Shown here piece after piece: positions 4,944 to 28,815 of a DNA stretch of 35,726 nucleotides. Under the pieces are notes generated by a model. It saw nothing but the letters and a program-made list of their open reading frames with translations. It was not told the origin of the DNA and did no database searches. Made by a program: the position numbers and the translations under genes. Origin of the DNA: Nitrospira sp. Its GTDB lineage: Bacteria; Nitrospirota; Thermodesulfovibrionia; Thermodesulfovibrionales; SM23-35. Within the stretch, counting starts at the first letter, position 1. Every line of letters starts with the position of its first letter. The stretch covers positions 1-35,726 of the forward strand of contig VGWX01000019.1 in NCBI GenBank assembly GCA_016873615.1, read 5' to 3'.

Positions 4944-6059
4944 TCAGCCTGCATTCTCTCCGGAAGATGAAACAGTGAATTTCTGTTCCTGGTAAAGCTT
5001 TATAAAAGCATCAACTATCACTTCGTCGAATTGTATGCCGGAATTCATCTTTAATTCCTTCAAAGCATTCTCAACGCTTAGCGCATCCCTGTAAGGTCTG
5101 TCTGAAGTAATTGCATCAAAAGTATCCGCTACCGCAATTATTTTTGCTATGACCGGGATATCATCATTTTTCAGACTGTCCGGATACCCCTTGCCGTCCA
5201 CCCTTTCATGGTGGCCCCGGACGCCCGGTATCACATCTTTCAGCTGCCTGATATGACTCAGTATCTCAGCCCCATATTTGGAATGCAGGATCATTTTCCC
5301 AAACTCCTCACGGTTCAGTCTGCCTCTTTTCAAAAGGACAGCATCACTGACGCCTATTTTACCAACATCATGGAGTATAGCAGCAAGCCTGAGGTCCTCG
5401 ATGTCTTTTTTTGAAAGACCTATAGATTCCCCGATCATGATGCTGTAATTCATTACTCTCCTCGTGTGACCTCCTGTATAGTGATCTCTTTTTTCGATTG
5501 TCTCTGCAAGGGCCTCAGCCGTGCCATAGAATGTGTCCTTCAATTCATGATAGAGGTTTGCATTCTCGATCGCTATCGCTACCTGGTTTGCAAGGGCTGA
5601 GAGAACCTCTTTATCGTCATCGCTGAAGACGCCCTTCTTTTTGTTTATCGCTTCGAGAACGCCAAGAACCCGGTCTTTTGATTTTACAGGGACACATACC
5701 ATATTCTTTGTCTTAAATTTGCTTTTTATATCAGGCATCTTGAAAAACCTGGGGTCTGACTGCACATCATCAATTATTATGCATTCCCCTTTTTCCATAA
5801 CCCAGCCTGCAATCCCCTGACCTTTCTTGATCCTGACCTCTTTTACCATGTTTCCCTTATCACCGAGGGCAACCTCAAAAAAAAGGTCGCCTGATTCCTG
5901 GTCGGCAAGGATGAGACTGCCGGCCTCTGCCTCCGCAAGCTTCATGGCTGCCTCAATTGCGCGTTTCCTTATTTCAGCCGTATCAAGTGATGAGTTTATA
6001 AGAGAGGAAAGCTCCATCAGTGTTTTTAACTGTTCAAGTTTTCTCAGGATTGAATTCAT
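4944..6059 (-). CDS. GAF-HD-GYP phosphodiesterase (cyclic di-GMP type)
   Basis: 371 residues. An N-terminal GAF sensor domain (about 15-165, beginning LEQLKTLMELSSLINSS) is linked by a helix to an HD-GYP domain (about 180-350). The latter shows the metal-binding HDVGKIG motif, the paired HH-ERVDGKGYP motif and VADTFDAITSDRPYR. HD-GYP proteins hydrolyse c-di-GMP (some act on cGAMP). No transmembrane segment is visible, so it should be cytosolic. It lies between trpA (4-nt ATGA overlap, 6056-6059) and accD, an unusual place for a second-messenger enzyme. The GAF ligand cannot be read from sequence. Confidence 0.9.
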   Translation of the reverse strand: MNSILRKLEQLKTLMELSSLINSSLDTAEIRKRAIEAAMKLAEAEAGSLILADQESGDLFFEVALGDKGNMVKEVRIKKGQGIAGWVMEKGECIIIDDVQSDPRFFKMPDIKSKFKTKNMVCVPVKSKDRVLGVLEAINKKKGVFSDDDKEVLSALANQVAIAIENANLYHELKDTFYGTAEALAETIEKRDHYTGGHTRRVMNYSIMIGESIGLSKKDIEDLRLAAILHDVGKIGVSDAVLLKRGRLNREEFGKMILHSKYGAEILSHIRQLKDVIPGVRGHHERVDGKGYPDSLKNDDIPVIAKIIAVADTFDAITSDRPYRDALSVENALKELKMNSGIQFDEVIVDAFIKLYQEQKFTVSSSGENAG

Positions 6060-21354: not shown

Positions 21355-23574
21355 TTATCCGCATTTTGTAAAGCCACAGTTATGGCATACGGCGCATCCG
21401 CCTTCGTGTTCAACTGCACCGCCGCATTCAGGGCAGGCGCCCATGAGCATGATGACCTTATTGCTGTCTCCATTGCCCTTCTTGCCTTTTGCATTGTATT
21501 TCTCTAATGCTCTTGCTATGGCATCAGAGCAGGAAAGCACCCTGCCTCCGTCATGCCATGTCGGTGAATGGCATGAAATGCCTTTCAGTTGATTGATAAC
21601 TTCATCAGGCTCGATATTTGATCTGAATGCAAGCGACACGAGTCTGCCGATCGCTTCGGACTGACTCGCAGCACATCCGCCGGCCTTGCCCATTGAGGTG
21701 AAAAGTTCAAAAAGATGTCCCTCTCCATCTTCATTAATCGTGACATAGAGATTTCCACAGCCTGTCTTCATGAACCTTGTTGATCCTCTTATAACTTCCG
21801 GTCTTTTTCTCGGCACAATCTTCTGCCATGATTCTATTGCATGCTTCTCATCTTTTCTGCCCTTTGTGAGAACCTGCTTTTCTCTTGAACCGTCGCGGTA
21901 AACAGTGACGCCCTTGCAGCCGAGTTTATATGCGAGGAGATATACGTCTTCCACATCTTTTGGAGTTGCTTTATGAGGGAAATTCACAGTTTTTGAAACA
22001 GCATTATCAACGAATTTCTGGAAAGCCGCCTGCATGGTTATATGTTCCACGGGTGAGATGTCATGGGCAGTTACAAAGACAGCCTTAACATCGCTTGGTA
22101 TCTCTTCAAAATCCTGCACGGAACCTTTGTCTGCTATCCTCTCCATGAGGTCTCTGGACCAGAATCCGCGTTCTTTTGCAACCTTCTCAAAATATGGGTT
22201 TATCTCAATGAGTTTTGTGCCTTCCATGACAGTCCTTACGAAAGAGACGGCAAAGAGCGGTTCAATCCCTGATGAACAGCCTGCTATTATCGAGAGAGTT
22301 CCTGTTGGGGCTATGGTTGTAACTGTTGCATTTCTCAGTTTTACCTTGCCGTCATAGATACTTCCTTCATAATTCGGAAAGACCACCCGTGCGGCTGCAA
22401 GCGCTTCTGATGCGCTCTTGCCTTCTTTCTGAATGAACTCCATTACATCTTCTGCAAGATGCGCAGCCTTATCAGAGTTATACGGAATCCCGAGTTGTAT
22501 GAGCATGTCTGCCCATCCCATCACCCCAAGGCCTATCTTTCTGTTCGCCTTTGTCATCTCCTCTATCTTCGGGAGAGGATATTTGTTGATATCGATGACA
22601 TTATCGAGGAAGTGTACTGCTTTCCATGTTGTGTCTCTGAGTTTATCCCAGTCCACCTCAGTGCTTTCTGGTTTTATCATCTTTGCGAGATTGATTGAAC
22701 CCAGGTTGCAGGACTCATACGGCAGAAGTGGCTGTTCACCGCAGGGATTGGTTGACTCTATATGTCCTGCTTTGGGGGTAGGATTTGACGCATCAACCCT
22801 GTCAATGAAGACGATGCCGGGTTCTCCGTTTCTCCATGCATGCTCTACGATGAGATTAAAGACGTCCTTAGCCTTCAGGGTGTTCGCTACTTTTTTTGTT
22901 CTTGGGTTGATAAGGTCATATGTCTTGTCTTCTTCAACGGCCTGCATGAACTCATCAGTAATTGCAACAGAGATATTAAAGTTATTGAATTTTGCAGTGT
23001 CATCCTTGCATGTAATAAAATTGAGGATATCAGGGTGATCGACCCTCAGGATGCCCATATTGGCGCCTCTTCTCGTGCCGCCCTGTTTAACAGCTTCAGT
23101 GGCTGTATCAAAAACAGTCATAAAAGAGACCGGGCCTGAGGATATGCCTTTGGTGGAGCCGACAATATCTCCATTCGGTCTCAGCCTCGAAAAACTGAAG
23201 CCTGTGCCTCCGCCTGATTTATGAATAATCGCGGTATGTTTGACCGCGTCGAAAATGGATTCCATAGAGTCATTAACAGGGAGTACAAAACAAGCACTGA
23301 GCTGGCCGAGCCTCCTTCCTGCATTCATAAGGGTAGGGCTGTTTGGAAGAAATGCAAGGGAAGTCAGCATAGTGTAGAAATCGTTCTCAAACGCTTCGAC
23401 TTCTTCAGGAGATTTTCCATACTGCAGATCAGCAGATGCAATACTTTTTGCAACCCTTCTGAAGAGATCGTCAGGCGTCTCTACTACCTTTCCCTCCTCA
23501 TTCTTTTTCAGGTACCTCTTTTCAAGCACCTTCAATGCATTTGGTGTCAAGTTTAATCCTTTCAGCGCTTCCAT
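21355..23574 (-). CDS. nrdJ: Adenosylcobalamin-dependent (class II) ribonucleotide reductase
   Basis: 739 residues. An N-terminal ATP-cone-less start (LTPNALKVLEKRYLKK) is followed by the NrdJ barrel with LPNSPTLMNAG, LSACFVLPVNDS (substrate-cleft Cys), NPCGEQPLLPYESCNLGSINLAK (finger-loop Cys) and TIAPTGTLSIIAGCSSGIEP. A C-terminal tail holds GGCAASQ and ends in a zinc ribbon CPECGGAVEHEGGCAVCHNCGFTKCG with the redox-active cysteines. It reduces ribonucleotides to deoxyribonucleotides using B12, without oxygen. A strong AAGGGGGAG precedes the ATG. It lies 45 nt downstream of a small Cys-rich ORF, behind a promoter with two NrdR-type boxes. I see no cobalamin riboswitch. Confidence 0.96.
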   Translation of the reverse strand: MEALKGLNLTPNALKVLEKRYLKKNEEGKVVETPDDLFRRVAKSIASADLQYGKSPEEVEAFENDFYTMLTSLAFLPNSPTLMNAGRRLGQLSACFVLPVNDSMESIFDAVKHTAIIHKSGGGTGFSFSRLRPNGDIVGSTKGISSGPVSFMTVFDTATEAVKQGGTRRGANMGILRVDHPDILNFITCKDDTAKFNNFNISVAITDEFMQAVEEDKTYDLINPRTKKVANTLKAKDVFNLIVEHAWRNGEPGIVFIDRVDASNPTPKAGHIESTNPCGEQPLLPYESCNLGSINLAKMIKPESTEVDWDKLRDTTWKAVHFLDNVIDINKYPLPKIEEMTKANRKIGLGVMGWADMLIQLGIPYNSDKAAHLAEDVMEFIQKEGKSASEALAAARVVFPNYEGSIYDGKVKLRNATVTTIAPTGTLSIIAGCSSGIEPLFAVSFVRTVMEGTKLIEINPYFEKVAKERGFWSRDLMERIADKGSVQDFEEIPSDVKAVFVTAHDISPVEHITMQAAFQKFVDNAVSKTVNFPHKATPKDVEDVYLLAYKLGCKGVTVYRDGSREKQVLTKGRKDEKHAIESWQKIVPRKRPEVIRGSTRFMKTGCGNLYVTINEDGEGHLFELFTSMGKAGGCAASQSEAIGRLVSLAFRSNIEPDEVINQLKGISCHSPTWHDGGRVLSCSDAIARALEKYNAKGKKGNGDSNKVIMLMGACPECGGAVEHEGGCAVCHNCGFTKCG

Positions 23575-23619: not shown

Positions 23620-23787
23620 TTACTGTTTTTCAAAATAAGTTCTTTCTTTATTTGCATCACGTATGCTGCTTATCTGCCTATTCATTTCTTCAATCACGTT
23701 TTCACCCTCTATCAGGCAGGCTTTTGTGCATAAATAGGGACAATTTAGGCATTCAAGCCAGTTTCCTAACCCTCTGCAAGGTTCCAA
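23620..23787 (-). CDS. Small Cys-rich protein in the nrdJ leader
   Basis: 55 residues from a TTG (23785-23787) placed 7 nt after AAGGAG, ending TAA at 23620-23622. The sequence has five cysteines: C4, then C13-x2-C16-x3-C20-x3-C24 in LECLNCPYLCTKACLIEG, followed by a charged helix (ENVIEEMNRQISSIRDANKE). The compact CxxCxxxCxxxC block suggests an Fe-S cluster or zinc site. It is the first gene behind the NrdR-type promoter and is presumably cotranscribed with nrdJ 45 nt downstream. It is too short for usual gene-calling cut-offs. I know no characterised homologue; a redox, metal or regulatory partner of the reductase is a guess. Confidence 0.65.
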   Translation of the reverse strand: MEPCRGLGNWLECLNCPYLCTKACLIEGENVIEEMNRQISSIRDANKERTYFEKQ

Positions 23788-23816
23788 GGATTGTCTCCTT
23801 TTGAGATTTTACTTTA

Positions 23817-23828
23817 ACAATAAATTGT
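23817..23828. promoter_or_regulatory. NrdR-type box 2
   Basis: ACAATAAATTGT, a 12-bp near-palindrome matching the core of the NrdR box. Its centre lies 31 bp (three helical turns) from the centre of box 1, as expected for paired NrdR sites. Confidence 0.6.
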
Positions 23829-23839
23829 ATTCCCTGAAA

Positions 23840-23868
23840 ATTAAACCACAATATATTGTGCTTGTCAA
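23840..23868 (-). promoter_or_regulatory. Promoter of the nrd leader ORF and nrdJ
   Basis: Minus strand: TTGACA (23863-23868), a 17-nt spacer and TTTAAT (23840-23845). Transcription should start near 23833, about 46 nt before the TTG of the small ORF. NrdR box 1 fills the spacer. Confidence 0.75.
23847..23860. promoter_or_regulatory. NrdR-type box 1
   Basis: CACAATATATTGTG, a perfect 14-bp palindrome matching the NrdR consensus ACACWATATATWGTGT, located between the -35 and -10 of the nrd promoter. NrdR is the zinc-finger/ATP-cone repressor of ribonucleotide reductase genes. Confidence 0.8.
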
Positions 23869-23947: not shown

Positions 23948-25366
23948 TTATTTTATAATCTCGGCAGTAAAGGTATATAATTCGGCGTCCCTCCATGCGT
24001 ATTCCGGTAAACCTGCTTTTGCACAAAGGTTTTTCAGAAAGGCGTCTCTGTCCCATCCCAATTCTCCTGCGACCTGTGGAAGAAGAAGGCCGCTATGTGC
24101 GCCTTTTCTGATAACAAGACCATGTTTGCCGATTTGGATGTCCTTTATGTCTTTGACCGGATTCATTGGAGAAAGTATTGATATCTCGATATCGATATCC
24201 TTTAATTCCTCTTCTCTCATTGGAGGGAATCTCGGGTCGCCTGAACACGCTGCTATGGCATTTTTTATTACAGACTGATACAGCGGCATGATCGCCTGAA
24301 CATGCCCGATACAGCCCCTTAAAGAGCCATTCTTTTTAATAGTCACAAAAACAGCTCCATCAGCCTTGTATTTCTGGTTGTTTACTTCTATCTTAGGCGT
24401 TTTCCCATTTCTCACATAATCAGTAACAGCCTTTCCTGCCAAAGCAAGAAGGTCTTTCTTTTCCTGTTCTGTTAAGGGACTTTTATAGAGTCCGATGGAG
24501 GCATAACCAACTACATGATCCTTTCCGTCTGAAACATCGCCTGAATTTGCATACTTAAATAGCACGCCGAGGTTTGCTCCCTGCCTCCGTGCTATCTCCA
24601 TGGCAATGATCACCGGGAATGCGCCGCACATTTCAGCCGTACCATCCTTCAAAAGCTGTCCCGCATCTATGACAGAAAGTCTCTCAATGGCTGATATCAT
24701 ACGGCTGTCCATTTCTATCGCCTTATGATAATCATGATAGTGTGAGAGGTCTGTGCTTGCAATGATTAATGTTTTCTCATCAAGTATCTCTGTCAGTCTT
24801 GATATAAGATGTTCGTATGTATGTTTCGTGGGTGAACCAACGAGAATGGGAATTATAGTAAAGTCTTTAAGGACTGTTTGGAGGAACGGCAACTGTACCT
24901 CGATCGAATGCTCTTTTTCAAATGCGCCCGGATTAAACATAACGTCAGCATTCCCGTTGAGCAGGCTTTCCGCAAGTTTTTCATTTATCTTTATATCACC
25001 GATAGGAGTTCTGAAACTCCCTTTTGTATAAACAGACGCCCCTTTGAATCCCGCATGATGACTGGATCCGATCAGTATAACCTTTTGTATCCCGCTGTCT
25101 TTAATCTCCTGATATCCGTATGCTGCCACCTGTCCTGAATATCTGTAGCCTGCATGCGGCGATATGATTGCGATGAGTCTTCCATCTCTCTTTCCTTTCT
25201 GCACTTTAGATAGAAAACTTCCGACAGCTTCTTTCAATTCCTTTTTATCAGAGGGATAGAACTTACCGGCTACAGAAGGCTCTTTGATATTTTCAGCACA
25301 GCCTGCAGAGCAGGGAATAAAGAGAAGGCAGCAGACAATAAGAAAAAATAATTTTATAAAATTCAA
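23948..25366 (-). CDS. AmmeMemoRadiSam proteins B and A fused: exported MEMO-AMMECR1 protein
   Basis: 472 residues from TTG 25366, with GGAGG 8 nt upstream. An N-terminal signal sequence (IKLFFLIVCCLLFIPCSAGC, lipobox-like at the end) predicts export, perhaps as a lipoprotein. A MEMO domain follows (about 30-290) with the metal-site motifs ISPHAGYRYSG, GSSHHAG, STDLSHY and EMCGAFPV. An AMMECR1 domain (about 300-472) carries LRGCIGHV and PRFPPMREEEL. In genomes with this set, MEMO, AMMECR1 and a radical SAM protein occur together and their shared function is not established. The radical SAM gene lies just upstream; a short orphan Tat leader overlaps this gene's start. Confidence 0.9.
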   Translation of the reverse strand: MNFIKLFFLIVCCLLFIPCSAGCAENIKEPSVAGKFYPSDKKELKEAVGSFLSKVQKGKRDGRLIAIISPHAGYRYSGQVAAYGYQEIKDSGIQKVILIGSSHHAGFKGASVYTKGSFRTPIGDIKINEKLAESLLNGNADVMFNPGAFEKEHSIEVQLPFLQTVLKDFTIIPILVGSPTKHTYEHLISRLTEILDEKTLIIASTDLSHYHDYHKAIEMDSRMISAIERLSVIDAGQLLKDGTAEMCGAFPVIIAMEIARRQGANLGVLFKYANSGDVSDGKDHVVGYASIGLYKSPLTEQEKKDLLALAGKAVTDYVRNGKTPKIEVNNQKYKADGAVFVTIKKNGSLRGCIGHVQAIMPLYQSVIKNAIAACSGDPRFPPMREEELKDIDIEISILSPMNPVKDIKDIQIGKHGLVIRKGAHSGLLLPQVAGELGWDRDAFLKNLCAKAGLPEYAWRDAELYTFTAEIIK

Positions 25367-25637: not shown

Positions 25638-26612
25638 CTAACTCCATACTCCTGCAACAGGACTGCTGCAGAATTTGCACTTGCCATTCAATATATGATT
25701 CTGTTTTACAAAATATCCAATCCTTTCGACCAGCAGCTTTTTGCATTTAGGGCAGAATGTGCTTTCCCCTTCATGCCTGATGTTTCCGATGTAGACATAT
25801 CTCAAACCGGAATCCATTGCAGCCTTTCTCGCATCAATAAGGGTCTCAAGCGGGGTAGGGGGAAGATTCGTCAGTTTGTAATGAGGAAAGAACCTTGAGA
25901 AATGGACCGGTGTATCAGATCCGAGGTTTTTCTGCATCCATATGCACATATCTTTGATATTCTTTATGTTGTCATTCAACGTAGGGATAACAAGATTGGT
26001 GATTTCAAGCCAGACACCTTCTTCCTTTAAAACCACAAGAGAATTCAGTACAGGCTTTAGACTGCCGCTGCAGATCCTGCCATAGAAATCCTCTGTGAAT
26101 GCCTTAAGGTCAATATCAGCGGCATCCATGTATTTTGATAATTTCCTGAGAGGTTTTTCATTTATATATCCGCAGGAATGCATTGTGTTCTTTATCCCCT
26201 GCTTCCTGGCAATGACAGCCGTATCATACATATATTCATAAAAGACTGTAGGTTCTGTATACGTGTAGGTAACAGACCTGCATTTATTTGCTATCGCCTG
26301 AGAGACTACTTTATCCGGAGGCAGGTCATACGTATCAGTATCTTCAGGTTTTGCCTGGGATATCTGCCAGTTCTGGCAGAATTTACAACTCAGTACACAC
26401 CCTGCGGTAGCGATGGAAAAAGCAGTAGTCCCCGGCAGAAAGTGAAAAAACGGTTTTTTTTCTATCGGATCAATATGTACAGCGCATGGTTTTCCGTATA
26501 CAAGGCTGTATAGTTTTCCATCCTTGTTCATCCTTGTCCTGCACCTGCTGCGCTGGCCTTCATCCAGGACACAACCGTTCGGGCAAAGCTCGCACTGGAC
26601 TCGATTAGCCAT
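25638..26612 (-). CDS. amrS: AmmeMemoRadiSam system radical SAM enzyme
   Basis: 324 residues. An N-terminal cysteine cluster CELCPNGC...RCRTR (C7, C10, C14, C24) precedes the radical SAM motif CVLSCKFCQN (C72, C76, C79) with a typical TYTEPTVFYEY and a C-terminal CPKC...KCKFC pair that suggests a second metal site. It is related to the pyruvate-formate-lyase activating enzyme group. No leader is present: the protein starts MANRVQCELCP. A TATAAT at 26619-26624 ends 6 nt before the ATG and there is no Shine-Dalgarno. The downstream MEMO-AMMECR1 gene is presumably its partner. The substrate is unknown. Confidence 0.92.
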   Translation of the reverse strand: MANRVQCELCPNGCVLDEGQRSRCRTRMNKDGKLYSLVYGKPCAVHIDPIEKKPFFHFLPGTTAFSIATAGCVLSCKFCQNWQISQAKPEDTDTYDLPPDKVVSQAIANKCRSVTYTYTEPTVFYEYMYDTAVIARKQGIKNTMHSCGYINEKPLRKLSKYMDAADIDLKAFTEDFYGRICSGSLKPVLNSLVVLKEEGVWLEITNLVIPTLNDNIKNIKDMCIWMQKNLGSDTPVHFSRFFPHYKLTNLPPTPLETLIDARKAAMDSGLRYVYIGNIRHEGESTFCPKCKKLLVERIGYFVKQNHILNGKCKFCSSPVAGVWS

Positions 26613-26803: not shown

Positions 26804-27634
26804 ATGTGGGAATATACAGATAAGGTAAAAAAATTCTTTTTAGAACCAAAGAATATCGGCGAAGTTGAGAACCCGGATGCTGTGGGAGATGTCGGCAGTA
26901 TGGTATGCGGTGATGCTCTGAGGCTTACTCTGAAAATTGACAAAGATACGAGCAGGATCACTGATGCGAAATTCCAGACATTCGGCTGTGCGAGCGCTAT
27001 CGCAAGCTCATCAGCGCTGACTGAACTTATTAAGGGAAAGACACTTGATGAGGCGATTCAGGTAACAAATCAGGATATTGCAGAATTCCTCGGCGGTCTG
27101 CCCCAGGAGAAGATGCACTGCTCAGTCCTGGGAAGAGAGGCTCTTGAGTCTGCTATTGCAAATTATAAGGGCATACCGATAGCTGTTGAAGAAGAAGGCA
27201 AGGTTCTCTGCAAGTGTTTCAATGTTACAGAAGAAAAGATAAGGAAGGTTGCGATAGAAAATCATCTGACTACAGTTGATGAAATTACTGATTACACGAA
27301 GGCCGGGGGAGGCTGCGGTGAATGCAGGCCTGATATAGAGGCTATTCTCAGGGACATATGGTCTTTGAAGGCGCCTGAAAAGCCTGTAAAGCCAAAGAAA
27401 CTTACCAACCTTCAGAAGATAGCTCTCATTCAGGAGATTATCGAGCGGGAAATAAGGCCGGGATTACAGGCAGACGGAGGAGACATCGAACTCATTGACA
27501 TAGACGGCAACAGGGTTATTATTGCCCTGCGCGGCATGTGCACCGGATGCGCTATGGCAGGCGTAACAATCAATGGCGTCCAGCTAAAACTCAGGGAACT
27601 TGTAAGCGATGATATAGTTATAGAGGCGCAATGA
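26804..27634 (+). CDS. nifU: Fe-S cluster assembly scaffold NifU (three-domain)
   Basis: 276 residues with all three domains of full-length NifU. The IscU-like scaffold (about 1-125) has cysteines in VCGDALRL, FGCASAIA and MHCSVLG. A central BFD-like [2Fe-2S] domain has CKCFNVTEEKI and GGGCGECRP. The C-terminal Nfu domain (about 205-276) has QADGGDIEL and RGMCTGCAMAGVT. It assembles Fe-S clusters with sulfur from NifS, whose start overlaps by 4 nt. No nitrogenase gene is in view, so general Fe-S assembly in an anaerobe is likely. Two upstream promoters are visible, one adjoining a CIRCE operator. Confidence 0.95.
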   Translation: MWEYTDKVKKFFLEPKNIGEVENPDAVGDVGSMVCGDALRLTLKIDKDTSRITDAKFQTFGCASAIASSSALTELIKGKTLDEAIQVTNQDIAEFLGGLPQEKMHCSVLGREALESAIANYKGIPIAVEEEGKVLCKCFNVTEEKIRKVAIENHLTTVDEITDYTKAGGGCGECRPDIEAILRDIWSLKAPEKPVKPKKLTNLQKIALIQEIIEREIRPGLQADGGDIELIDIDGNRVIIALRGMCTGCAMAGVTINGVQLKLRELVSDDIVIEAQ

Positions 27635-28815
27635 ACACGATATATTTTGACAATAATGCAACAACCCCTGTAGCCCCTGAAGTTCTTGAGGAGATGCTTC
27701 CGTACCTCAGTGAATATTATGGCAACCCTTCAAGCATGCATACCTTTGGCGGTCAGCTCCACAGAAAGGTTGAAGAGGCAAGGCACAGGGTTGCGCAACT
27801 GATTGGCGCTGAGCCTGAGGAGATAATTTTCACGAGCTGCGGCACAGAAAGCGACAATACAGCAATAATGAGCGCTGTTGAATCATATCCCCAAAAAAGG
27901 CATATCATTACAACAAGGGTTGAGCACCCTGCTGTTATGAATTTCTGCAAGCATCTTGCGCGAAAAGGCTTCAGGGTTACATACCTGCCTGTTAACAACT
28001 ATGGACAATTACAGGTCAGTGATTTAATGAAGACGATTGAGGATGATACAGTGGCGGTATCCATCATGTATGCTAATAACGAGGTTGGGAATATCTTCCC
28101 TATACCGGAAATCGTAGAAATACTCAGGGAAAGGCGAATACTGTTTCATACTGATGCTGTTCAGGTCGTTGGGAAGATACCCATAGACGTCAAGAAACTC
28201 CCTGTTGATATGCTGTCCCTTTCAGGTCATAAGCTGCATGCCCCCAAAGGCATAGGGGCTCTGTATGTAAGAAAAGGCACAAGGTTTTCTCCCTATCTTA
28301 TCGGTGGACATCAGGAGAGGGGGAGGAGGGCCGGCACTGAAAATGTGGCGTCAATCATAGCCCTTGGCAAGGCATGTGAACTTGCCTTGAAGAATCTCAA
28401 TGAAGAAGTCGTATATTTAACCCGTTTGCGGGATAAACTTGAGAATTCGCTTTTGCAGTCATGCCCTGATGCCAGGATCAACGGAGATGTAAGCAGCAGA
28501 CTGCCGAATACCACAAACCTGAGTTTTGAGTACGTTGAAGGGGAAGCGATACTGCTTAGACTCAATGAATACGGCATCTGCGCCTCATCAGGTTCGGCCT
28601 GCACTTCCGGGTCTCTTGAGCCTTCTCATGTCCTCAGGGCAATGGGAGTGCCTTTTACCGCAATACACGGCTCAATCAGATTTTCATTAAGCAGATACAA
28701 TATAGAGGATGAGATAGATAAAGTAACAGAGATTATGCCAAAGATAATAAAAAACCTCAGGATGCTCTCCCCATTCGGCAGGGATAAGCTCGGTCAGAGT
28801 ATCAAATGTCCTTAA
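27631..28815 (+). CDS. nifS: Cysteine desulfurase (NifS)
   Basis: 394 residues. PLP-dependent class V fold: FDNNATTPVAPEVL at the start, HTDAVQ, the PLP lysine in SLSGHKLHAPKG, and the active-site cysteine in CASSGSACTSGSLEPSHVL. It takes sulfur from cysteine and passes persulfide to NifU. It is coupled to nifU by an ATGA overlap (27631-27634). The 3' end overlaps the convergent phospholipase-like gene by 14 nt. Confidence 0.96.
   Translation: MNTIYFDNNATTPVAPEVLEEMLPYLSEYYGNPSSMHTFGGQLHRKVEEARHRVAQLIGAEPEEIIFTSCGTESDNTAIMSAVESYPQKRHIITTRVEHPAVMNFCKHLARKGFRVTYLPVNNYGQLQVSDLMKTIEDDTVAVSIMYANNEVGNIFPIPEIVEILRERRILFHTDAVQVVGKIPIDVKKLPVDMLSLSGHKLHAPKGIGALYVRKGTRFSPYLIGGHQERGRRAGTENVASIIALGKACELALKNLNEEVVYLTRLRDKLENSLLQSCPDARINGDVSSRLPNTTNLSFEYVEGEAILLRLNEYGICASSGSACTSGSLEPSHVLRAMGVPFTAIHGSIRFSLSRYNIEDEIDKVTEIMPKIIKNLRMLSPFGRDKLGQSIKCP

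What the first reader, a model, noticed from the sequence alone, without database searches (positions are those of the whole stretch)
23620..23787. Unlisted 55-residue Cys-rich protein at the head of the nrdJ transcript
A TTG-initiated ORF with AAGGAG at 7 nt fills the leader between an NrdR-type promoter and nrdJ. It has a tight CxxCxxxCxxxC cluster, a fifth Cys and a charged helix, which looks like a metal or Fe-S site rather than random sequence. Being first in the ribonucleotide reductase transcript suggests a partner or regulator of class II reductase: a reductant, a cobalamin/metal helper or a sensor. Its size and TTG start would hide it from most gene callers.
Basis: partly seen in the sequence, partly recalled or inferred. 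Interest (0 to 1): 0.75.

Follow-up and report, generated by a model that had tools for sequence, protein, structure and literature searches.

The report
Tiny cysteine-rich protein before nrdJ
A real, previously unclassified 55-residue cysteine-rich protein is the first gene of the switch-controlled transcript that makes a vitamin-B12-dependent DNA-building-block enzyme in one order of anaerobic bacteria; it is conserved but dispensable, probably binds a metal or iron-sulphur centre, and is a candidate helper for an enzyme whose natural electron donor is unknown.

Summary
The 55-codon TTG ORF at 23620-23787(-) is a protein-coding gene. Homologues were found in 48 of 177 genomes of the same order. 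In 45 of these the gene lies directly upstream of nrdJ on the same strand, one is cut by a contig edge, and two lie elsewhere. Pairwise dN/dS is mostly 0.1-0.5. Core consensus: C-K-G-x3-W-x2-C-x2-C-P-x2-C-T-x2-C-P-[IL]-E. Nearly every intact nrdJ-linked copy follows a sigma-70 promoter whose 17-nt spacer is an NrdR box. Sampled genomes lacking the gene mostly carry a box directly before nrdJ. The gene is therefore a removable first cistron of an NrdR-controlled nrdJ unit, lost or degraded repeatedly. No Pfam, NCBIfam or PDB family matches. The Cys site resembles 4Fe-4S ferredoxin motifs and the four-Cys loop of some Rrf2 regulators equally well, so membership in neither is claimed. The adjacent NrdJ carries the six-Cys C-terminal domain for which thioredoxin and glutaredoxin failed as donors in the one enzyme tested (PMC5704485). 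Best reading: a small metal/Fe-S accessory of class II ribonucleotide reductase, perhaps its redox partner. Reality of the gene is near certain; the role is inferred.

The parts
23620..23787 (-). 55-codon small Cys-rich ORF (TTG start; LEPCRGLGNWLECLNCPYLCTKACLIEGENVIEEMNRQISSIRDANKERTYFEKQ)
   Evidence: homologues across the order, dN/dS below 1, invariant C4 W10 C16 C24
23795..23800 (-). Shine-Dalgarno AAGGAG, 7 nt from the start codon
   Evidence: comparable purine-rich sites before many homologues
23863..23868 (-). -35 hexamer TTGACA
   Evidence: conserved at the same distance from the box in all but one of the loci scored
23846..23861 (-). NrdR box 1 (GCACAATATATTGTGG), filling the promoter spacer
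   Evidence: NrdR itself encoded at G000:C11
23840..23845 (-). -10 hexamer TTTAAT
23815..23830 (-). NrdR box 2 (ATACAATTTATTGTTA), 31 bp downstream of box 1
   Evidence: weaker, seen above threshold in only some relatives
21355..23574 (-). nrdJ, class II ribonucleotide reductase, 739 aa, TSCPD domain and C-terminal six-Cys array (C714, C717, C727, C730, C733, C738)
   Evidence: 45 nt after the small ORF's stop

Best explanation
The ORF is a genuine small protein of a new, order-restricted family, translated from the first cistron of the NrdR-repressed nrdJ transcription unit, so it is made together with the class II reductase when dNTP supply is low. Its four-to-five conserved cysteines (core C4, C13, C16, C24, with C20 optional) most likely hold one metal or Fe-S centre, followed by a short charged helix. 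The most likely role is a non-essential accessory of NrdJ, for example a redox partner that helps keep the NrdJ C-terminal six-cysteine domain reduced or metallated. Shown: coding, conservation, co-transcription layout, shared NrdR promoter, dispensability. Inferred: metal binding, physical or functional action on NrdJ, direction of the effect.
For: Homologues in 48/177 order genomes, 45 directly upstream of nrdJ on the same strand. dN/dS mostly 0.07-0.5 while synonymous sites reach saturation. TTGACA-NrdR box-TTTAAT before 41 of 42 scored ORFs (38 with a box score of 13/16 or more; shuffles average 0.3), 39-134 nt from the start codon. In many sampled genomes without the gene the same box lies about 83-118 nt before nrdJ, so the cistron is inserted or removed cleanly. 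No terminator and no good consensus promoter directed at nrdJ between the ORF and nrdJ. G009's ORF overlaps the nrdJ start. Invariant C4/W10/C16/C24 and near-invariant C13/C20/T21/P25/E27 fit a metal site; weak hits are to 4Fe-4S domains. The window NrdJ has the six-Cys domain that PMC5704485 shows carries electrons and binds zinc, and for which thioredoxins and glutaredoxin did not work in the enzyme tested.
Against: Most nrdJ-bearing genomes of the order lack it, with no obvious change in the NrdJ cysteines, so NrdJ does not need it. In G014 and G019 it sits in a polysaccharide locus without an NrdR box, next to another small Cys-rich ORF. No metal, fold or interaction could be shown; the AlphaFold models are poor (pLDDT 58 and 56). 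Nothing beyond genomic layout ties it to NrdJ chemistry.
Confidence: 0.5

Rival explanations
1. A small Zn- or Fe-S-binding regulator or sensor, not an electron donor: it would tune NrdJ activity or transcription in response to redox or metal state, much as small inhibitors tune eukaryotic reductases.
For: First-cistron position under NrdR; four-Cys spacing C-x8-C-x2-C-x7-C-P with an aromatic at +6 identical to the ligand loop of a four-Cys Rrf2 subtype; repeated loss fits a modulator.
Against: No DNA-binding domain; the Rrf2 resemblance scores no better than a ferredoxin control (66.5% against 66.0% probability); that Rrf2 subtype was not found in the window's genome.
Confidence: 0.22
2. A general small metal- or redox-protein with no specific tie to NrdJ, placed under the NrdR promoter for growth-linked expression and able to move to other loci.
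For: G014 and G019 carry it in a polysaccharide locus beside a second Cys-rich ORF; G024 has a diverged orphan copy far from nrdJ; many losses.
Against: 45 of 48 genomes keep it exactly between the NrdR promoter and nrdJ, across several families.
Confidence: 0.2
3. A leader peptide whose Cys codons sense cysteine or ribosome stalling to control nrdJ (attenuation).
For: It is an ORF in the leader, rich in Cys codons.
Against: Selection acts on the protein (W, T, P, E and spaced Cys conserved; dN/dS mostly 0.1-0.5); no terminator-like hairpin near the window copy; no run of Cys codons; two copies lie outside nrdJ leaders.
Confidence: 0.04
4. A chance ORF or decaying remnant with no function.
For: Degraded copies exist: G020 truncated, G004 frayed, G271 with an altered end after the fourth Cys of the cluster.
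Against: Dozens of intact copies under purifying selection.
Confidence: 0.02

Closest known systems
NrdH/NrdI/NrdG-type accessory genes of ribonucleotide reductase operons (from general knowledge)
   Same: Small partner gene co-transcribed with a reductase under dNTP-dependent control.
   Different: No sequence relation was found to any known family; those partners serve class I and III enzymes, and this one precedes class II nrdJ.
NrdJ C-terminal cysteine-rich domain / NrdJb (PMC5704485)
   Same: Small Cys array linked to class II reductase; a redox and zinc site.
   Different: Here that domain is already fused to NrdJ; profile comparison shows no relation (probability 0.4%).
4Fe-4S ferredoxin domains (Pfam Fer4 group)
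   Same: C-x2-C-x(n)-C-x3-C-P motif; weak hits (best E 0.004); hhalign probability 66%.
   Different: Spacing C-x2-C-x3-C-x3-C-P instead of the ferredoxin C-x2-C-x2-C-x3-C-P; no ferredoxin repeat; an extra conserved C4; C20 can be lost.
Rrf2 family, four-Cys subtype (PF02082)
   Same: Identical C-x8-C-x2-C-x7-C-P spacing, aromatic at C+6, following helix.
   Different: No winged helix; hhalign probability 66%, no better than ferredoxin; the Rrf2 proteins fetched from this order show other Cys patterns.
DUF1284 (PF06935)
   Same: Short C-x2-C-P-x6-C stretch gives a weak hit in G013.
   Different: Larger domain with His motifs; only part of the motif is shared.

Membership tests
Ferredoxin (Fer4) | C-x2-C-x2-C-x3-C-P cluster motif | tested here: not met
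   Motif here is C-x2-C-x3-C-x3-C-P in the alignment; C20 absent in G024 and G036
Ferredoxin (Fer4) | Significant match to a family model | tested here: not met
   Pfam best E 0.004 in single members, none for the window protein
Rrf2 regulators | N-terminal winged helix-turn-helix | tested here: not met
   48-64 aa proteins beginning 2-8 residues before C4
Rrf2 regulators | Cys ligand loop spacing of the four-Cys subtype | tested here: inconclusive
   Spacing identical, but the profile score equals the ferredoxin control
NrdJb / detached CRD | Six-Cys C-terminal array and TSCPD domain | tested here: not met
   Five Cys, no TSCPD; hhalign 0.4% against NrdJ tails
Ribonucleotide reductase accessory protein | Co-regulation and co-transcription layout with the reductase | tested here: met
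   NrdR promoter and gene order conserved; the transcript itself was not observed
Ribonucleotide reductase accessory protein | Binds or changes activity of the reductase | not testable with these tools
   Needs biochemistry

The most novel reading that the evidence does not exclude
The protein is a dedicated Fe-S or dithiol electron donor or relay for class II ribonucleotide reductases with the C-terminal Cys-rich domain, that is, a reductant unrelated to thioredoxin and glutaredoxin.
Probability: 0.17. Interest if true: 0.85.

Novelty: new variant of a known kind. Interest (0 to 1): 0.55.

Why it matters
Class II reductases with a C-terminal Cys-rich domain are common in microbes, and in the one studied (Stackebrandtia) neither thioredoxins nor glutaredoxin supplied electrons (PMC5704485). 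A small Cys-rich protein co-expressed with such an enzyme under NrdR is a concrete, easily tested candidate partner. It is also a clean example of a conserved small protein absent from the family databases searched here.

Tried and rejected
Rfam scan: no regulatory RNA in the leader. Pfam, NCBIfam and PDB sequence searches: no family. AlphaFold with two alignments: confidence too low for a fold search, so none was run. Viral contigs, plasmids, phages: no relatives. The genome-contig scan with the single sequence found only two relatives; it could not be repeated with the profile, so phyla other than the window's were not properly tested. Rrf2 homology: attractive by eye and above shuffled controls, but a ferredoxin control scored the same, so it is not claimed. 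NrdJ columns that track presence or absence of the ORF: nothing clean, only variable linker positions and residue 574.

Full report
What is there. The minus strand of 23620-23787 holds a 55-codon TTG ORF with AAGGAG 7 nt before the start. It is followed after 45 nt by nrdJ at 21355-23574, a 739-residue class II ribonucleotide reductase with the all-alpha, barrel and TSCPD domains and a C-terminal array of six cysteines (CPEC...GGCAVCHNCGFTKC). Upstream, on the same strand, TTGACA (23868-23863), a 16-nt NrdR box (23861-23846) that fills the spacer, and TTTAAT (23845-23840) form a promoter; a second, weaker box lies 31 bp further on (23830-23815). The genome encodes NrdR.

Is it a gene? Searching 61 relatives with the single protein gave 28 genomes with a match. 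A profile of 26 homologues found 48 of 177 genomes in the order. The same order-wide search with NrdJ found 169 of 177. Matching coordinates between the two searches, 45 of the 48 lie on the nrdJ contig, same strand, just upstream of nrdJ. One (G325) is at a contig edge, and nrdJ begins at the end of another contig. Two (G014, G019) are elsewhere. Pairwise Nei-Gojobori estimates give dN/dS well below 1: for pairs with moderate dS mostly 0.07-0.5, highest 0.64; a few very close pairs with only a handful of changes run higher, up to 0.93. Of 45 homologues scored, 31 start with ATG, 8 with TTG, 5 with GTG, and one has no start codon near the motif. The gene is real.

Promoter. In 42 loci where the ORF start could be placed, 41 have the TTGACA-NrdR box-TTTAAT layout (or close variants of it) 39-134 nt before the start codon; 38 boxes score 13/16 or more, against a mean of 0.3 in 200 shuffles. 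The exception is cut by a contig end. In genomes without the ORF a box lies about 83-118 nt before nrdJ in many sampled cases, further upstream in some, and was not found in others (L078, L090, L091, L096, L097). No comparable Cys-rich ORF was seen there. The ORF is thus a cistron that can be present or absent between a fixed promoter and nrdJ.

Distribution. An NrdJ tree mixes carriers and non-carriers. Two separate groups of families carry the gene, with losses visible inside the window's own family (G003, G005, G007, G016) and another (G257, G275, G350). G020 keeps a truncated, degenerate copy, G004 a frayed one, and G271 a copy whose end is altered after the fourth Cys of the cluster. Some of these may be assembly errors in draft genomes. 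In 396 genomes drawn from the phylum, every match below 1e-3 lay in this order. Other phyla were not properly searched.

Exceptions. In G014 and G019 the ORF lies in surface-polysaccharide loci without an NrdR box and is followed by another small Cys-rich ORF (I-K-A-C-x2-C-x2-H...), which also occurs in the window's genome at C32:6093-6239 in a similar locus. G014's nrdJ is preceded by a DNA methylase gene and shows no NrdR promoter in its upstream sequence. G024 has a second, diverged copy away from nrdJ. So linkage to nrdJ is strong but not absolute.

The protein. In 44 homologues C4, W10, C16 and C24 are invariant, and C13, C20, G6, T21, P25 and E27 nearly so. Loss of C20 in both members of one genus points to C4, C13, C16 and C24 as the core site; the single C13-to-F change (G008) is against this unless it is a sequencing error. 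AlphaFold gives two helices at low confidence. Weak profile matches fall on 4Fe-4S domains and on the ligand loop of a four-Cys Rrf2 subtype with identical spacing. Profile comparison gives 66% for each, and shuffles that keep the Cys columns do not reach the Rrf2 score. This supports a metal- or Fe-S-type site in general; it does not identify a family.

Mechanism. Most likely the protein is an accessory of NrdJ made on demand with it. The redox-partner version is attractive because the six-Cys domain of such reductases carries electrons and binds zinc, while its natural donor was not found among thioredoxins and glutaredoxin in the enzyme studied (PMC5704485). That step is inference. The dispensability of the gene argues for a helper or modulator, or for a substitute donor in genomes that lack it.

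Verdict. Observation confirmed; interpretation partly supported. New small-protein family in a known kind of setting, and a testable candidate for an open question.

Noticed in passing
L141:6027-6242 (window genome C32), L004:3-125, L133:669-851: Another unclassified small Cys-rich protein (I-K-A-C-x2-C-x2-H...C...EC) in surface-polysaccharide loci; in G014 and G019 it follows a relocated copy of the nrdJ-linked ORF.
   Followed up: partly
L122 (window genome C67:8628-10325): A second, shorter class II reductase (about 575 aa, 59% identical, without the C-terminal Cys domain); six order genomes checked directly all have such a copy, and most others show a second NrdJ match.
   Followed up: partly
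window 23948-25366(-) and 25638-26612(-): Fused Memo-AMMECR1 protein and a radical SAM protein just upstream of the nrdJ unit; AMMECR1-like sequence also precedes nrdJ in some relatives.
   Followed up: no
window 26804-28815(+): NifU (with BFD-like Fe-S domain) and a NifS-like cysteine desulfurase gene close to the nrdJ unit.
   Followed up: no
L134:3285-4277: In G014 a DNA methylase gene directly precedes nrdJ, where other genomes have the NrdR promoter and small ORF.
   Followed up: partly
L128 about 5848-5946(-): Diverged orphan copy of the small ORF in complete genome G024, away from nrdJ, next to uvrA.
   Followed up: partly
L222-L251: Rrf2 regulators with a four-Cys loop C-x8-C-x2-C-x7-C-P, unlike the usual three-Cys IscR pattern.
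   Followed up: partly
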